A stretch of DNA of 64,000 bases, taken from contig NZ_PEIG01000019.1 of NCBI RefSeq assembly GCF_002749975.1, forward strand, positions 1 through 64,000, given 5' to 3'. The notes below the pieces were generated by a model. That model saw nothing but the letters and a program-made list of their open reading frames with translations, did not search any database and had not been told where the DNA came from. The translations under genes and the position numbers were made by a program. Shown here piece by piece: positions 57,078 to 64,000 of this stretch (positions are counted from its first letter, which is position 1; every line of letters starts with the position of its first letter). The stretch comes from Gloeocapsopsis sp. IPPAS B-1203 (GTDB taxonomy: Bacteria > Cyanobacteriota > Cyanobacteriia > Cyanobacteriales > Chroococcidiopsidaceae).

Positions 57078-60000
57078 ACTTCAATTTAGTCCCTTCAAAT
57101 CAAGGGATTTCTACGTGGAGATAGTTTTCTAAAATATCACCCATTAAAGTTTCAATTTCGTCCCTTCAATAAAAGGGATTTCTACCTTAAATCCTGCCTA
57201 AAGGTTTCCAAGCTAGCATGTTTCAATTTAGTCCCTTCAATAAAAGGGATTTCTACGCGCCAATAGAAGTCTTAAAGCAATACATCAGAGGTTTCAATTT
57301 AGTCCCTTCAATAAAAGGGATTTCTACTCTAATTCCAAGCTTGTAATGCTCAATCATTTCTAAAGAAAGTTTCAATTTAGTCCCTTCAATAAAAGGGATT
57401 TCTACGCTTGATCTCCCCAGTACGGGAGTCAGTGACAACGTTTCAATTTAGTCCCTTCAATAAAAGGGATTTCTACCTAGAACTGGCGTAACTACCACGC
57501 CATCGACAGGAATGTTTCAATTTAGTCCCTTCAATAAAAGGGATTTCTACTTAATGCTCTACTAATTTTTATCTTTTAATTCTGCGTTTCAATTTAGTCC
57601 CTTCAATAAAAGGGATTTCTACATTTCACCTTAAACTTAATATACTGTACCACGTGTTTCAATTTAGTCCCTTCAATAAAAGGGATTTCTACTTTAGCTT
57701 CAATTCTGTTTACAGTGTAATTTAAAAGTTTCAATTTAGTCCCTTCAATAAAAGGGATTTCTACTCAAGATCTCAGGGGATACTAGTACAAGCTTTAAGT
57801 TTCAATTTAGTCCCTTCAATAAAAGGGATTTCTACCTCAAGCGCGGGCTGGAAGTATGGCGAGATTACATTTAGTTTCAATTTAGTCCCTTCAATAAAAG
57901 GGATTTCTACTGCTGGGTCGCGACTATGGTGTGATTACAAATAAAATGTTTCAATTTAGTCCCTTCAATAAAAGGGATTTCTACACAAGAAGATAGCATG
58001 AACGAATCTATCCGGCGGGTTTCAATTTAGTCCCTTCAATAAAAGGGATTTCTACTCTACGTGCAAGATCGCCCTTGACGTTGTCTTGTTGTTTCAATTT
58101 AGTCCCTTCAATAAAAGGGATTTCTACGGATGTGAGCTTATGCGATCGCTGAATCCGCGATAAGTTTCAATTTAGTCCCTTCAATAAAAGGGATTTCTAC
58201 GTCGATATATCCATATTATGGGATACACTCTTTATGTTTCAATTTAGTCCCTTCAATAAAAGGGATTTCTACCTTTATTATTCTCAGCAATCTTCTTGGC
58301 TTCCCCCCAAAGTTTCAATTTAGTCCCTTCAATAAAAGGGATTTCTACTCAATCAATTTCAATTGAAGATAGCTTTGATTCATTAGTGTTTCAATTTAGT
58401 CCCTTCAATAAAAGGGATTTCTACCCGATGTTGCAATATCGTTTACCCGCTTGGGACTGTTTCAATTTAGTCCCTTCAATAAAAGGGATTTCTACTCAAG
58501 AGTTTCGAGCAGTTAATTCGGTATTGCAGCCGTTTCAATTTAGTCCCTTCAATAAAAGGGATTTCTACAGTCTAAATTCAGTTCGCCACCGCTAACAAGA
58601 GTTGTTTCAATTTAGTCCCTTCAATAAAAGGGATTTCTACAATATTTTCTAAGTCAATGCTTACTGCTGCGGGAGTTTCAATTTAGTCCCTTCAATAAAA
58701 GGGATTTCTACTGCACTCACAGCAGCAGGATTAGATACAAATCCGTTTCAATTTAGTCCCTTCAATAAAAGGGATTTCTACTGCAAAATATCTCTGCGGT
58801 TGCTGATCGTGTTTGCGTTTCAATTTAGTCCCTTCAATAAAAGGGATTTCTACCCAATCCGCGATGATTCGCGTTCCCCGACCGATGCACTCGCAAGTAC
58901 ATGGTTTCAATTTAGTCCCTTCAATAAAAGGGATTTCTACTTGATTCAGTGGTAGTATTTAGTGCGCTATCAGCAGGTTTCAATTTAGTCCCTTCAATAA
59001 AAGGGATTTCTACACTGGATACGATCGATCAGAAAATAAATAATTTGTTTCAATTTAGTCCCTTCAATAAAAGGGATTTCTACACCGCCCTTTCTCCCTC
59101 TAGCACGCGCCGCCGTCGTTTCAATTTAGTCCCTTCAATAAAAGGGATTTCTACCCCCCGTTTTTGGGTCAACACCAGTTACCGCCGTTTCAATTTAGTC
59201 CCTTCAATAAAAGGGATTTCTACTTGAGCGTGAGTAGTCCAGTAATGTTCCTCAAAAAGTTTGATGTTTCAATTTAGTCCCTTCAATAAAAGGGATTTCT
59301 ACTCAAAGTAGCATAATTATTTTGTTGATGAGTTTTAAGTTTCAATTTAGTCCCTTCAATAAAAGGGATTTCTACCACGGCAAAATCGGTACAATCACTC
59401 GATCAAAGCAAGGTTTCAATTTAGTCCCTTCAATAAAAGGGATTTCTACGTAATGGCAAGGATGCCTTGAGAGAAGCTGTTTCCCGTTTCAATTTAGTCC
59501 CTTCAATAAAAGGGATTTCTACATAGCAGAACTTTTACCACAGCACCTTGCGCTGCGTTTCAATTTAGTCCCTTCAATAAAAGGGATTTCTACGTGAGTG
59601 CAGATCTAGCAAGTAACAGAAGCGCTACAGTTTCAATTTAGTCCCTTCAATAAAAGGGATTTCTACCTGCTTCAGCTGCGCTCCCAGAAAGCAATTCAGC
59701 TTCGTTTCAATTTAGTCCCTTCAATAAAAGGGATTTCTACTCTGAAGTAGATGCCTTAGCAATTAATTGGGGAAATGTTTCAATTTAGTCCCTTCAATAA
59801 AAGGGATTTCTACGACTAGAATCATCAGAACTAGATGCGGCTAAAGAGTTTCAATTTAGTCCCTTCAATAAAAGGGATTTCTACTCACTATCAAGGTGTT
59901 GTAAATCAGTCTCTAACTGTTTCAATTTAGTCCCTTCAATAAAAGGGATTTCTACAACATTGTTCTTTACCTCCCTTTTGTCTTAGTCTGTTTCAATTTA

Positions 60001-60672
60001 GTCCCTTCAATAAAAGGGATTTCTACACCCGTCTTACAAAGGCGTTGTTGTAAGATTCTTTGTTTCAATTTAGTCCCTTCAATAAAAGGGATTTCTACTT
60101 TGATTACCATCGTTGAGCAGTGTTGAAATCGGGTTTCAATTTAGTCCCTTCAATAAAAGGGATTTCTACATTGGGGACTCGAAACTATACAGGAGGAACT
60201 GTTGGTTTCAATTTAGTCCCTTCAATAAAAGGGATTTCTACCCAGGCAATCTATCACTTAATTTCTCTAATCCTGTTTCAATTTAGTCCCTTCAATAAAA
60301 GGGATTTCTACTGGATTTTTGATGACGTGATTCCTTCGATCCGCAAGTTTCAATTTAGTCCCTTCAATAAAAGGGATTTCTACAAACTAAGCAAGCCTCA
60401 GCAGCACAGTTCCTAGGAAAGTTTCAATTTAGTCCCTTCAATAAAAGGGATTTCTACTTAACCTCTATAAATTCCGTTACGCTAATCTGCGTGTTTCAAT
60501 TTAGTCCCTTCAATAAAAGGGATTTCTACAAGTATTAGTTCTTCTAGAGTTGTAGCGATTCAAGTTTCAATTTAGTCCCTTCAATAAAAGGGATTTCTAC
60601 TAATTGGAGCCGTGTGTGTAAATGTGAAAGGAGTAGTTTCAATTTAGTCCCTTCAATAAAAGGGATTTCTAC
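57078..60672 (-). CRISPR. CRISPR array, 50 repeats of 37 bp and 49 spacers
   Basis: The 37-bp repeat begins GTTTCAATTTAGTCCCTTCA and ends AAAAGGGATTTCTAC on the + strand. On the minus strand it ends with ATTGAAAC, the usual 8-base crRNA tag, and contains TCCCTT-N6-AAGGGA. The first repeat (57078-57114) has five changes and the second (57149-57185) one; the other 48 read as identical. Spacers are 32-42 bases, mostly 33-37, except one of 50. Degenerate repeats at the left mark the old, distal end, so transcription and spacer acquisition run from the right, next to the minus-strand cas genes. Confidence 0.97.
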
Positions 60673-60838
60673 GGAGGCTCTTTCAAATTTGTTCTGTATG
60701 AGGTTTTCGAGGTTCGGGTGCGCGAGTTCTTTCGCATTTGCCAATAACATTATACTAATCATAGTTTTACAAGTACAAGAAAATACCTAAATTACTTGAT
60801 ATATAACCATTTCAGCAAATGCGCGAATCCAAAACAAC
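60673..60838 (-). promoter_or_regulatory. CRISPR leader with promoter and inverted repeat
   Basis: Read on the minus strand, TTGTAC-N18-TATAAT (-35 at 60778-60773, -10 at 60754-60749) gives a good promoter about 77 bases from the first repeat. GCAAATGCG (60815-60823) and CGCATTTGC (60733-60741) form a 9-bp inverted repeat flanking that promoter. The region lies directly after the csb2 stop. Confidence 0.65.
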
Positions 60839-62326
60839 TTAATCCGCTGAAGTCATTAGCATACCGTTATTCTGGGCAATGCCCTGATATACACCCACCC
60901 ACTCGCGCATAGGAACCATTGCCCCTAAGCCATAATGAGCAGCATACCCTAGGATAATAGGTCCAGTTACCACAGTTGTAAACTTTAACTTTACTTGATA
61001 ACCAACTTGCCCTACTTTCTTACCCTGTCGGCACTCAGATTCCCATTTCCAAAAGTTTGGAAATACTTGGCAAGAAGCAATAACAGCCACCTGATTATCT
61101 AGACAGAGTGCTAAACCGTCTTCATGCTCTTGGTAAGTAGGAGTTCCTTTGAGATTGAGCCAAGGAAGATATTGTAGATATTGCAGCACTTGATGTTCTG
61201 GACCATCTTTTTGATAATGCTCTGATAGCATTCGCGGTTTACCACGACGTACAGCGGGAAATCGGGAAAGAAAAAATGGTGTAGATGATATCCAATCTTC
61301 AGAAGCTGGCTCAAGACTTTCTATATCAGCGATCGCAAGCTTAAGATCGCAACTACGGGTAACTCCTGATAACTCAGAACAACTGGCGATCGCAGCTAAT
61401 GCTTCTGAACTATAGCCACTATAGCTATAAAGTCTGATTTGCTCTACGTAACGCCCTGTACGATCTGAAACACATTGAATAATTGTATGGTCGTGGTTTT
61501 TGCTGGGTTCTCCCATTTCCTGTCCTGTAAAAACAGACGCAGGACAACGACTAACTAAAGCCTGATGCAACCGATGTGTTAGCTTGAGAGCCGCATTAAA
61601 TGGTAGTTTAGGAGAACTTGAAACTGCTAATGTGATGCTATGTGTATGTTGCCAAGCAGAGTATTGTTTTTGGACTTGCTGTTGGTTAATACGATAAGTA
61701 GCCCAGCGGATACCAGGAAATATTGCCGAACGATTGACTCCATAATTTTCATAGGTAGACAAGTTCAAAGCATTCCATAAAGCATCTGCATCCAAATCAG
61801 AATCGGCGATCGCAACAATTCTTGTTCCTTGAATATCCGGTTCAGCATTCGGTTCTGGCGCAGTTTCTACTAATGATAGCGTTGCCACCGACTCCTTGCG
61901 ACCAAAATAAGTTAACCCAGACAAACACAGACTCAACACTAATTCTTCAATCTCAGCAAGCATCACTGACCAATGAATATACAAATCGTGCTGATGACTA
62001 GACATCAACAAACCTGCGGAATAAAGTGTTTTCCCAGGACCTACCTTAGCCGTTTTTAAGTTGACCTGCGGGCGCGGACTACGATGCTGAATATAGGTTG
62101 TAGGTGGTAGAGTGTAACTTGGCTGTACCAAAGCTAACTTGTGTAGTAACGCCTTTAATGTTGGCTGGTACTTGTCTAGGAGATTAACATGATAAGCTCC
62201 GGCAACGAGCGATCGCAAAATCCGCCAGGGAGCAGGAGGCCAATCAATCACTCCTTCTGCGTGCAGATTTCCCCAAGCACAAGCTTGATATTGGTTGGTG
62301 TGGAATTGAACCTTGATGTGGATCAT
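60839..62326 (-). CDS. csb2: Type I-G CRISPR protein Csb2 (Cas5-Cas6 fusion family)
   Basis: A 495-residue protein whose start has EGVIDWPPAPWRILRSLVAG (WPPAPWR at 29-35), the hallmark of Csb2/GSU0054. It is a fused Cas5-like and Cas6-like RAMP protein of type I-G (formerly I-U) systems; the C-terminal half ends with a glycine-rich YGLGAMVPMREW loop. It should cap the 5' handle of crRNA and process pre-crRNA. It overlaps csb1 by four bases (ATGA), so it is translationally coupled. Confidence 0.85.
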   Translation of the reverse strand: MIHIKVQFHTNQYQACAWGNLHAEGVIDWPPAPWRILRSLVAGAYHVNLLDKYQPTLKALLHKLALVQPSYTLPPTTYIQHRSPRPQVNLKTAKVGPGKTLYSAGLLMSSHQHDLYIHWSVMLAEIEELVLSLCLSGLTYFGRKESVATLSLVETAPEPNAEPDIQGTRIVAIADSDLDADALWNALNLSTYENYGVNRSAIFPGIRWATYRINQQQVQKQYSAWQHTHSITLAVSSSPKLPFNAALKLTHRLHQALVSRCPASVFTGQEMGEPSKNHDHTIIQCVSDRTGRYVEQIRLYSYSGYSSEALAAIASCSELSGVTRSCDLKLAIADIESLEPASEDWISSTPFFLSRFPAVRRGKPRMLSEHYQKDGPEHQVLQYLQYLPWLNLKGTPTYQEHEDGLALCLDNQVAVIASCQVFPNFWKWESECRQGKKVGQVGYQVKLKFTTVVTGPIILGYAAHYGLGAMVPMREWVGVYQGIAQNNGMLMTSAD

Positions 62327-63303
62327 GCTTCAACAGCTTCCTCTTCTTCAGCAAATTGCACTTGGTCATCTGGTACAACAACTCGTACTTTTTCAAATAA
62401 ATCTTGACAATTATTAATTGCAGCTTTAAGTTGTTGTTCTAATTCCTCAAAAGCAGGTAATTTCTGCATACTTGTTTCTGATTTAGGAATTAAGTAACAT
62501 TCAGTGCGTAATGTCACAGGTTCAGATAGTAAGCGACGAATGAGATATTCACTGAGTACCTGAATAAGATGTTTAGCTCGACTATCTAAGTTAGATTTAT
62601 CAACGAGGCGAGTATCAATCACAAATCGTCCTAAATAGCGTTGCGCCTTGAAACTTTCGCGTACATAAACAATGTTTCCCAAACCGGCTTCACTCGGTTT
62701 TTTTACCGCCTGATCTTTGTCATTCTTGACAGCAAACATATGCTTGAGGTTGACTCCTTTACCACGTGCAGAAACCGGATCGTGAACCGCCCCACCAGTC
62801 GGCATAGAAATTGCATTTTCTGCAACAAACTCACCAGATAAAACCCTGGGAATGCGGTATACTCCTGCAATGTGGGTATAAAAGCTACCTAGCACAATAC
62901 TCATAGGACACAGTGCAAATGCAGCTTGATAAACTCCGCTGTGTCTAATCCGCTGGCGCAAGCCTTCACGAAACCTTTGTCCATCGAGTTGGGCGTGTTT
63001 GTTCTTGAGTAGATAGCCAGTTCCCAAACGGTGTGGTAAATCTAAAGTACTAGCGACGTACTGCCCAGATTTTGTATAAATTTCAACAAAGGGTAATCCA
63101 GCAAGTTCAGGAATGAGAGTATGATTCACACTATCCCAAATGCTATCTTCAATTAAATTAGCTGTTGCTTGTGGTGTGTGTAATAAAACATCAAGCCGTT
63201 GTTCCCAAGGGAGATAAGCTTGAGAAACACCGACATCTAAAAAAGTAGGAGGTTTAACAGTTGGCAGGGCAGAATCAAATTCTACAGTAATTACGTTAAG
63301 CAT
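62323..63303 (-). CDS. csb1: Type I-G CRISPR protein Csb1 (Cas7-like backbone)
   Basis: A 326-residue RAMP protein. LLHTPQATANLIEDSIWD, GVYRIPRVLSGEFVAENA, and GGAVHDPVSARGKGVN followed by GLGNIVYVRESF fit the Csb1/GSU0053 pattern as I remember it. It would be the repeated Cas7 backbone subunit of the Cascade-like complex along crRNA. It has an acidic C-terminus (EEEEAVEA). It overlaps csx17 by 8 bases and csb2 by 4 bases in one operon. Confidence 0.8.
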   Translation of the reverse strand: MLNVITVEFDSALPTVKPPTFLDVGVSQAYLPWEQRLDVLLHTPQATANLIEDSIWDSVNHTLIPELAGLPFVEIYTKSGQYVASTLDLPHRLGTGYLLKNKHAQLDGQRFREGLRQRIRHSGVYQAAFALCPMSIVLGSFYTHIAGVYRIPRVLSGEFVAENAISMPTGGAVHDPVSARGKGVNLKHMFAVKNDKDQAVKKPSEAGLGNIVYVRESFKAQRYLGRFVIDTRLVDKSNLDSRAKHLIQVLSEYLIRRLLSEPVTLRTECYLIPKSETSMQKLPAFEELEQQLKAAINNCQDLFEKVRVVVPDDQVQFAEEEEAVEA

Positions 63304-64000
63304 GGGTTTCTCCTAATTGATGAAAAGGTTGACAGGGAAAAACAAGCGCCAGCGCACAGCGTTTACCAGCAGCAATTGAATTTGGTAAGACTACTGGTTG
63401 GATTGCAGCAAGTTGCCGACAAAGTGGGACAGTAGAGCCAATTAATAAAGCATTTACCGATTGCATACTCAAGGAGGTATTGCAAGTCCATTGAAGTGAA
63501 GCAGCATATTTGTAAGCCTCTGGTAAAGGTTGAGTATGAGAAAAAGGGGTAAATTTTTTAGGAATTCGACAAAGTGCAAATCCTATAGCTAGCTCTAGAA
63601 TGAGTTGATCGTTAGTACGCCCAGCAATGAAAGCTGCGATCGCATCTGGACTAGCGCGATATGTCCAACCGTGGGCGGGATGGTATCTATCTTTTTCCCA
63701 AAGCTCATTCCATAATTTGAGTAAAGACACACATAAAACTTCTAAAGAAGAAGTCTTCAGTTTGTGGTGATGATTATCTGACCAAAACCAAGCGTCTTTA
63801 TCTTTGCTATATCTTGCTGAGGACAGCAATGGTCGAAACGAATGCGAATGTCTCGAATCTATGTGTGTTGTTGCAGTGCTAGCAAGTGCAGCGGCTAATT
63901 CAACTTCAGCAATGGGATATTCCTGATAAACTGCCTCAATCCATTTCTCCCCTAATTTGGGAACTGGAGGTAGTTTAGTTTTAATTCGACTATGCAACAC
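63296..64000 (-). CDS. csx17: Type I-G CRISPR large subunit Csx17 (Cas8-like), 3' part only
   Basis: The C-terminal 234 codons of a larger protein whose 5' end lies beyond the right edge. DAIAAFIAGRTNDQLILELA and IGFALCRIPKK match the C-terminus of Csx17, the large-subunit (Cas8-like) protein of the I-U/I-G Dpsyc-type systems. The leftmost residues at the edge are internal, not a true start. cas3, cas1/4 and cas2 are expected further right. It heads the visible csx17-csb1-csb2 operon. Confidence 0.78.
   Translation of the reverse strand: MLHSRIKTKLPPVPKLGEKWIEAVYQEYPIAEVELAAALASTATTHIDSRHSHSFRPLLSSARYSKDKDAWFWSDNHHHKLKTSSLEVLCVSLLKLWNELWEKDRYHPAHGWTYRASPDAIAAFIAGRTNDQLILELAIGFALCRIPKKFTPFSHTQPLPEAYKYAASLQWTCNTSLSMQSVNALLIGSTVPLCRQLAAIQPVVLPNSIAAGKRCALALVFPCQPFHQLGETHA

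What the first reader, a model, noticed from the sequence alone, without database searches (positions are those of the whole stretch)
57078..64000. Type I-G (I-U) CRISPR-Cas locus in a cyanobacterium with a 49-spacer array
Seen: 50 repeats with 49 spacers downstream of csx17-csb1-csb2 on the same strand, and no other cas genes in the window. Known: csb1/csb2/csx17 are markers of type I-G, a less studied subtype. Cyanobacterial arrays are more often tied to I-B, I-D or III systems, although I-G occurs. Inference: an active I-G interference complex uses this large array.
Basis: partly seen in the sequence, partly recalled or inferred. Interest (0 to 1): 0.7.

Follow-up and report, generated by a model that had tools for sequence, protein, structure and literature searches.

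The report
CRISPR system borrowing another's memory writer
A cyanobacterial type I-G CRISPR system has its own DNA-destroying proteins and a 49-entry memory but no genes for adding entries; its memory carries the docking signal, the target rule and one identical entry of a second CRISPR system (type I-D) in the same genome, so the two probably share one memory writer.

Summary
In detail: type I-G genes and an array of 50 repeats and 49 spacers lie on the minus strand at 57078-64000. Past the window edge the operon continues with the rest of csx17 and cas3g; no cas1, cas2 or cas4 follows. The only Cas1 found in the 99.9%-complete genome is the Cas1d of a type I-D locus on another contig.

Evidence that the I-D adaptation module writes the I-G array: (1) the I-G leader carries, 52 nt before repeat 1, an element shared with I-D leaders; (2) in 3 of 10 genomes with both arrays compared, the two share spacers, and all six same-strand pairs start at the same PAM-side base (36/36 identity in this genome); (3) I-G targets carry the I-D PAM GTN (11 of 19; background 5%), never TTN (0 of 19).

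It is a lineage trait: 0 of 21 cyanobacterial I-G loci have cas1 beside them, against 28 of 37 scorable loci elsewhere. The repeat keeps I-G hairpin geometry. Against: 7 of 16 element-bearing loci lie in genomes where no Cas1d was found; no acquisition was observed. I-G, I-D and adaptation in trans are known; I did not meet this pairing in the papers searched.

The parts
63296..64000 (-). csx17 (cas8g), C-terminal 234 of 689 aa; full gene C19:63296-65365. cas3g follows outside the window at C19:65310-67499
62323..63303 (-). csb1 (cas7g), 326 aa
60839..62326 (-). csb2 (cas5-cas6 fusion, the probable pre-crRNA nuclease), 495 aa
60673..60838 (-). leader between csb2 and repeat 1
60697..60724 (-). 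leader element shared with I-D leaders, starting 52 nt before repeat 1 (23 of 27 consensus positions)
60810..60825 (-). second shared box, starting 153 nt before repeat 1
57078..60672 (-). CRISPR array, 50 repeats and 49 spacers
59303..59338 (-). spacer 19, identical over 36 of 36 nt to spacer 14 of the I-D array on C21
57078..57114 (-). degenerate last repeat (5 mismatches), trailer end

Best explanation
A complete type I-G interference module with its own array but no adaptation genes. New spacers are written into the array in trans by the Cas4d-Cas1d-Cas2d complex of the co-resident type I-D system, which docks on a leader element common to both arrays and brings in fragments cut at a GTN PAM. 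The transcript is then cut by Csb2 at the I-G repeat hairpin and used by Csx17, Csb1, Csb2 and Cas3g against GTN-flanked DNA. Shown by sequence: gene content, shared leader element, shared spacers with the same PAM-side start, GTN at targets. Inferred: that Cas1d does the integration, that the I-G effector accepts GTN, that both systems are active.
For: No cas1/2/4 in the locus and one Cas1 in the genome, a Cas1d. Leader element at 52 nt in 19 of 22 cyanobacterial I-G loci, 9 of 11 arrays beside Cas1d, 1 of 18 beside other Cas1 types, 1 of 35 arrays on non-cyanobacterial I-G contigs. Shared spacers within a genome: 7 in 19,916 I-D/I-G comparisons, six on the same strand, all with the same 5' start. 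GTN at 11 of 19 I-G target sites, P 2.6e-10, TTN 0 of 19, decoys 0 of 187. 0 of 21 cyanobacterial I-G loci with cas1 against 28 of 37 elsewhere.
Against: Seven of 16 element-bearing loci are in genomes in which no Cas1d was found (G018, G138, G204, G421, G054, G060, G177). Cas1d is not significantly enriched in I-G carriers (6 of 14 against 103 of 374, P 0.23), and repeat decay does not separate carriers with and without it (P 0.13). Shared spacers in only 3 of 10 genomes compared. Eight of 19 I-G sites lack GTN, and the single site of the control arrays also reads GTG. L191 has the element without Cas1d; L189 and L193 lack it beside Cas1d. No acquisition was observed.
Confidence: 0.8

Rival explanations
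1. The shared leader and spacers are history: the I-G array was fed by an I-D module in the past, but is now a fixed memory and no longer grows.
For: Seven element-bearing loci are in genomes without a detected Cas1d; the G388 array has shrunk to about 5 repeats and the locus of a congeneric genome is a remnant.
Against: In this genome 48 of 50 repeats are identical and decay is at the trailer end; the leader element is intact and a Cas1d locus with its own array is present.
Confidence: 0.12
2. An ordinary I-G system whose own cas4/1 and cas2 are missing from the assembly.
For: The genome is in 57 contigs; elsewhere 28 of 37 scorable I-G loci have cas1 beside them.
Against: The operon sits inside a 102,990-base contig and 0 of 21 cyanobacterial loci have cas1 beside them, one of them in a single-contig genome. 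It would not explain the I-D leader element, the GTN PAM or the shared spacers.
Confidence: 0.04
3. GTN reflects selection by the I-G effector, and the spacers were written by some other machinery; the resemblance to I-D is coincidence.
For: Effector selection alone could enrich GTN; four I-G carriers have no Cas1 found at all.
Against: It does not explain the leader element at a fixed 52 nt or why all six same-strand shared spacers start at the same base.
Confidence: 0.04

Closest known systems
Type I-G (I-U) CRISPR-Cas with Cas4/1 fusion, e.g. Thioalkalivibrio sulfidiphilus, Methanosarcina barkeri (PMC9638904, PMC10274657; passages read)
   Same: cas3g, csx17, csb1, csb2; C-terminal HD part; repeat hairpin followed by 4 nt and an 8-nt handle.
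   Different: No cas4/1 or cas2; leader element and PAM of type I-D (GTN, not TTN).
Cyanobacterial type I-D (Synechocystis; review PMC10212523, passages and section 9 read)
   Same: Leader element, GTN PAM, spacers of about 35 nt, 37-nt repeats, spacers shared within a genome.
   Different: Different repeat sequence and hairpin, different effector (Cas3g/Csx17 instead of Cas3d/Cas10d).
VI-B arrays fed by II-C Cas1 in Flavobacterium columnare (PMC8092290; outline and section 11 read)
   Same: A locus without cas1-cas2 fed in trans by another type.
   Different: There a DNA- and an RNA-targeting system with no similarity at the leader-repeat junction; here two DNA-targeting type I systems with a common leader element.
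Shared acquisition in co-occurring systems (PMC8482600; abstract and passages read)
   Same: Effector locus without cas1-cas2 whose spacers carry the partner's PAM.
   Different: In the passages seen, shared acquisition pairs DNA- with RNA-targeting systems, DNA-DNA pairs have their own machinery, and the I-G PAMs listed (TAC, TAN, TTN, AAN, TTC) include no GTN.

Membership tests
Type I-G (interference module) | csb1, csb2, csx17 and cas3g in one operon matching I-G profiles | tested here: met
   all four pass NCBIfam cut-offs
Type I-G (interference module) | repeat with hairpin, 4 nt, 8-nt handle as cut by Csb2 | tested here: met
   prediction only; rule from PMC9638904
Type I-G (interference module) | TTN interference PAM | tested here: inconclusive
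   stored spacers: TTN 0 of 19, GTN 11 of 19; interference itself not testable
Type I-G (usual adaptation module) | cas4/1 fusion and cas2 in the locus | tested here: not met
Array served by the I-D adaptation module | I-D-type leader element in front of the array | tested here: met
Array served by the I-D adaptation module | GTN PAM at targets | tested here: met
   11 of 19 against 5.0% background; not exclusive
Array served by the I-D adaptation module | spacers shared with the I-D array with the same PAM-side end | tested here: met
   one pair in this genome
Adaptation in trans | partner Cas1 needed for growth of the array | not testable with these tools
   needs a cas1d deletion or a reconstitution

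The most novel reading that the evidence does not exclude
Cyanobacterial type I-G is a plug-in weapon: a lineage that gave up its own cas4/1 and cas2, took an I-D leader as an address label, moved from TTN to GTN, and is fed by the I-D adaptation module of its host, so that one memory writer arms a Cas10d-based and a Cas3-based DNA-destroying complex against the same invaders. The same element on a Cas1-less I-G contig binned as the archaeon Methanomethylicus (L128) would mean that the label travels widely.
Probability: 0.6. Interest if true: 0.75.

Novelty: new variant of a known kind. Interest (0 to 1): 0.64.

Why it matters
Two DNA-targeting type I systems with different repeats and effectors appear to share one integrase through a leader element. 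That makes leader recognition by Cas1-Cas2 testable with natural pairs, suggests that an effector's PAM can follow a borrowed Cas4 rather than its own family, and gives a reason for keeping two effectors: a phage that blocks one still meets the other with the same memory (inference). A 2025 survey of cyanobacterial type I systems has 0 occurrences of I-G or I-U in its main text (PMC11903412).

Tried and rejected
Rejected: another subtype for the proteins; a missed Cas1 in this genome (second profile); the Cas4-Cas1 fusion of relatives G390, G400 and G396 as an I-G adaptation gene (the G400 one is typed I-MYXAN; the leaders of all three lack the element).

Led nowhere: phage and plasmid records gave no usable protospacer for the window array (none; two Paenibacillus plasmids at 76.6%, E 1), for the G390 array against phages, for L105, or for L045 against plasmids. 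Six exact-pattern scans of viral contigs for shared spacers found nothing. Repeat decay did not separate genomes with and without Cas1d. No structure prediction was run.

Limits of the counts. The leader consensus was written by eye from leaders (24 leaders), so those count partly by construction; among loci not the element is at 6 of 9 I-G loci and 4 of 6 Cas1d arrays. Dropped before counting: L110 and L156 (same contigs as L045 and L039), two tandem repeats with units of 60-61 nt (L205, L110), and loci with no array found (L051, L194, L195, L198, L202). Of the 18 'other Cas1' arrays, six (L180, L182, L183, L204, L206, L207) were not typed by NCBIfam. Cas1d of G388, G390 and G400 was typed only by my own profile. 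One search used E <= 1e-120, stricter than the curated cut-off, so 109 of 388 is a lower bound. One search used 27 of the 40 I-D spacers of this genome (one search used all 40), and its between-genome control used 11-base seeds against 9 within genomes. One search kept the best 80 of 176 relatives; many arrays could be tested on one flank only. Target regions for one search were picked because a spacer matched there, not by PAM, and were not annotated. Fisher tests do not correct for relatedness. The same script also found repeats within single arrays: 4 pairs in the G390 I-G array and 4 in the G396 fusion array.

Full report
WHAT IS THERE. The window is C19:1-64000 of a 57-contig genome, 99.91% complete. 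G037 is congeneric, and its contig C54 has the same length, 61,672 bases, as a contig of Gloeocapsopsis crepidinum LEGE 06123, so the host is a Gloeocapsopsis-like cyanobacterium (inference). On the minus strand lie csx17 (cut by the edge), csb1, csb2 and then an array of 50 repeats and 49 different spacers. The contig further right holds the rest of csx17 (689 aa) and a cas3g of 729 aa (TIGR02621, 489.5 bits, cut-off 400). No cas1, cas2 or cas4 follows.

WHICH SYSTEM. csb1, csb2, full csx17 and cas3g pass the NCBIfam type I-G cut-offs. The HD part lies C-terminal to the helicase (weak HD matches at residues 559-638 and 529-719). The repeat is predicted to fold into a 7-bp hairpin with 12 nt after it, i.e. 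4 nt plus the 8-nt handle AUUGAAAC, the geometry reported for Csb2 cleavage (PMC9638904, passages). The I-D repeat of this genome has 5 nt after its predicted stem, so pre-crRNA processing is probably not shared.

WHERE THE MEMORY WRITER IS. The only Cas1 found in the genome is on C21, a Cas1d (447.5 bits, cut-off 385). It lies in an I-D locus with a WYL-domain gene, cas3d, cas10d, cas7d, cas5d, a 2OG-family gene, cas6d and cas4d, a small ORF that reads as cas2 (not profile-searched), and its own array of 41 repeats and 40 spacers with a different 37-nt repeat.

A LINEAGE TRAIT. In an even draw of 388 cyanobacterial genomes 14 match the csb2 profile, 13 above its cut-off; a search of 60 nearer relatives added more. 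I fetched 20 loci. All 20 have csb1 and csb2, 19 have cas3g and csx17 (G404 ends with its contig), 19 have an array in the fetched stretch (none seen in G270), and none has cas1; csb1 of G204 and cas3g of G270 are split over two frames. Whole-genome searches of these 20 genomes put no Cas1 beside csb2, and in four (G018 on a single contig, G096, G138, G204) no Cas1 was found. Counting loci, 0 of 21 cyanobacterial ones have cas1. Outside cyanobacteria 28 loci have it, mostly as a cas4/1 fusion soon after csb2, and 9 with at least 3 kb downstream do not (P 3e-8 against the 18 cyanobacterial loci with that much sequence).

THE LEADER. I-G and I-D leaders share an element, consensus CGCGCAACTGAACCTTGAAAACTNCATA. 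At 20 or more of 27 positions it is present in 19 of 22 cyanobacterial I-G loci, in all 19 starting 52 nt before repeat 1. The misses are G096, G016, and G406 with a 13/27 form at 52 nt. It is at 9 of 11 arrays beside Cas1d (misses L189, L193), 1 of 18 beside other Cas1 (L191), and 1 of 35 arrays on non-cyanobacterial I-G contigs (L128); Fisher P for I-G against other Cas1 is 4e-7. Among loci not used to write the consensus it is 6 of 9 (I-G) and 4 of 6 (Cas1d). A second box near 153 nt is in 11 of 13 I-G and 4 of 5 I-D leaders and 0 of 6 others. The I-D review describes three conserved leader motifs that enhance uptake, one likened to an integrase anchoring site (PMC10212523, section 9); I did not see their letters. 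Repeat length fits too: the Cas1d-linked repeats printed are 37 nt, as are most cyanobacterial I-G repeats (36 in G018 and G177), whereas 28 of 35 arrays on non-cyanobacterial contigs have 36.

SHARED SPACERS. In this genome I-G spacer 19 equals I-D spacer 14 over 36 of 36 nt. G400 has one such pair (36/36); G390 has four (31/33, 31/36, 35/35, 32/35) and one overlap on opposite strands. All six same-strand pairs start at the same base on the PAM side and differ by 0-4 nt in length at the other end, as expected if PAM-bound Cas4 sets one end. Three pairs differ by 2-5 substitutions, so they are separate captures of one protospacer in related invaders. In G390 the order of shared spacers differs between the two arrays, which speaks against one joint episode. 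Controls: I-G against other arrays of the same genome 1 in 16,528 comparisons (shifted by 19 nt); between genomes 0 in 1,039,581. Seven of the 10 genomes with both arrays showed no shared spacer.

PAM. The 187 spacers of three I-G arrays (G000, G390, G400) were matched to stretches of related genomes chosen because spacers hit there (not annotated, prophage-like by inference). Nineteen have a site of at least 75% identity; reversed decoys give 0 of 187. Upstream triplets: GTN 11, ATT 3, TCT 2, GAT, CCT and CCA 1 each, TTN 0; background GTN 5.0%, TTN 9.5%; P 2.6e-10. Of 186 I-D spacers 7 have sites: GTN 3, ATN 3, GCT 1. Of 181 control spacers from other arrays 1 has a site, also GTG. The I-D PAM is GTN (PMC10212523); I-G PAMs on record are TTN (PMC9638904) and TAC, TAN, TTN, AAN, TTC (PMC8482600). 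One spacer of the G225 (Richelia sinica) I-G array, of the other repeat group, matches Aphanizomenon phage CL131 at 32/35 with GTG.

MECHANISM. Cas4d-Cas1d-Cas2d takes a GTN-flanked fragment, trims the PAM end, docks on the common leader element and inserts behind either leader; equal repeat length would let one ruler serve both (inference). The I-G transcript goes to Csb2, the I-D transcript to Cas6d. Two different DNA-destroying complexes then hold the same kind of memory.

WHAT SPEAKS AGAINST IT. Of 16 element-bearing loci whose genomes were searched, 7 are in genomes with no Cas1d found, and Cas1d is not significantly enriched in I-G carriers (6 of 14 against 103 of 374 at E <= 1e-120, P 0.23). 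Arrays there are not clearly more decayed (P 0.13). Either Cas1d was lost recently, or sits on replicons not assembled, or has an alternative. Eight of 19 I-G sites lack GTN; the sites are in relatives, not the original invaders, so escape changes are possible but not shown. GTN could also be kept by the effector rather than set at acquisition.

KNOWN OR NEW. Type I-G, type I-D and adaptation in trans are known. PMC8482600 (passages) reports acquisition shared between DNA- and RNA-targeting systems; its DNA-DNA pairs have their own machinery. PMC8092290 (outline, section 11) has VI-B using II-C Cas1. PMC12669027 (2025 classification) and PMC11903412 (2025 cyanobacterial survey) show 0 occurrences of I-G in the held main text; figures are not held. 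PMC9500819 (one passage) lists Csx17, Cas3 and Csb1 on a viral contig. Ten searches of the open library listed no paper whose title or abstract start describes adaptation of cyanobacterial I-G; subscription papers are mostly not held, so I do not claim it is not in print.

Noticed in passing
L009:9311-11500 (C19:65310-67499), Cas3g: Walker A reads GAGKE in all six window-clade Cas3g aligned, where the other five cyanobacterial ones read GAGKT or GLGKT; the DE[IVT]Q and HD motifs are intact.
   Followed up: no
L044 (G018:C1:2275000-2294900): Single-contig genome with an I-G operon, an array and the leader element, but no Cas1 found by two profiles. How this array was filled is unexplained.
   Followed up: partly
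L128:7150-7650: I-G contig binned as Candidatus Methanomethylicus mesodigestus, no cas1 on its 8,373 bases, carries the leader element at 52 nt (22 of 27) and 37-nt repeats.
   Followed up: partly
L063:9042-10400 (G388): About 1.3 kb inserted between the csb2 3' end and the leader, transposase-like by its look (not searched); the array has shrunk to about 5 repeats.
   Followed up: no
L098:2112-3451 (Gloeocapsopsis crepidinum LEGE 06123): Remnant of the locus: cas3g cut after about residue 255, then transposase-like sequence (not searched) and a single I-G repeat.
   Followed up: partly
L250-L253 (G388:C1:176-216 kb and 2300-2320 kb) and L248 (G037:C133): Stretches with several protospacers each for I-G and I-D spacers of this genome, probably related prophages; not annotated.
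   Followed up: partly
L064, spacer 79 (G390 I-G array): The spacer begins with TTGAAAC, a copy of the end of the repeat, and otherwise matches spacer 93: looks like an integration slip.
   Followed up: no
L182 (G396), spacers 38-40 and 41-43: A block of three spacers is duplicated in the array beside the Cas4-Cas1 fusion.
   Followed up: no
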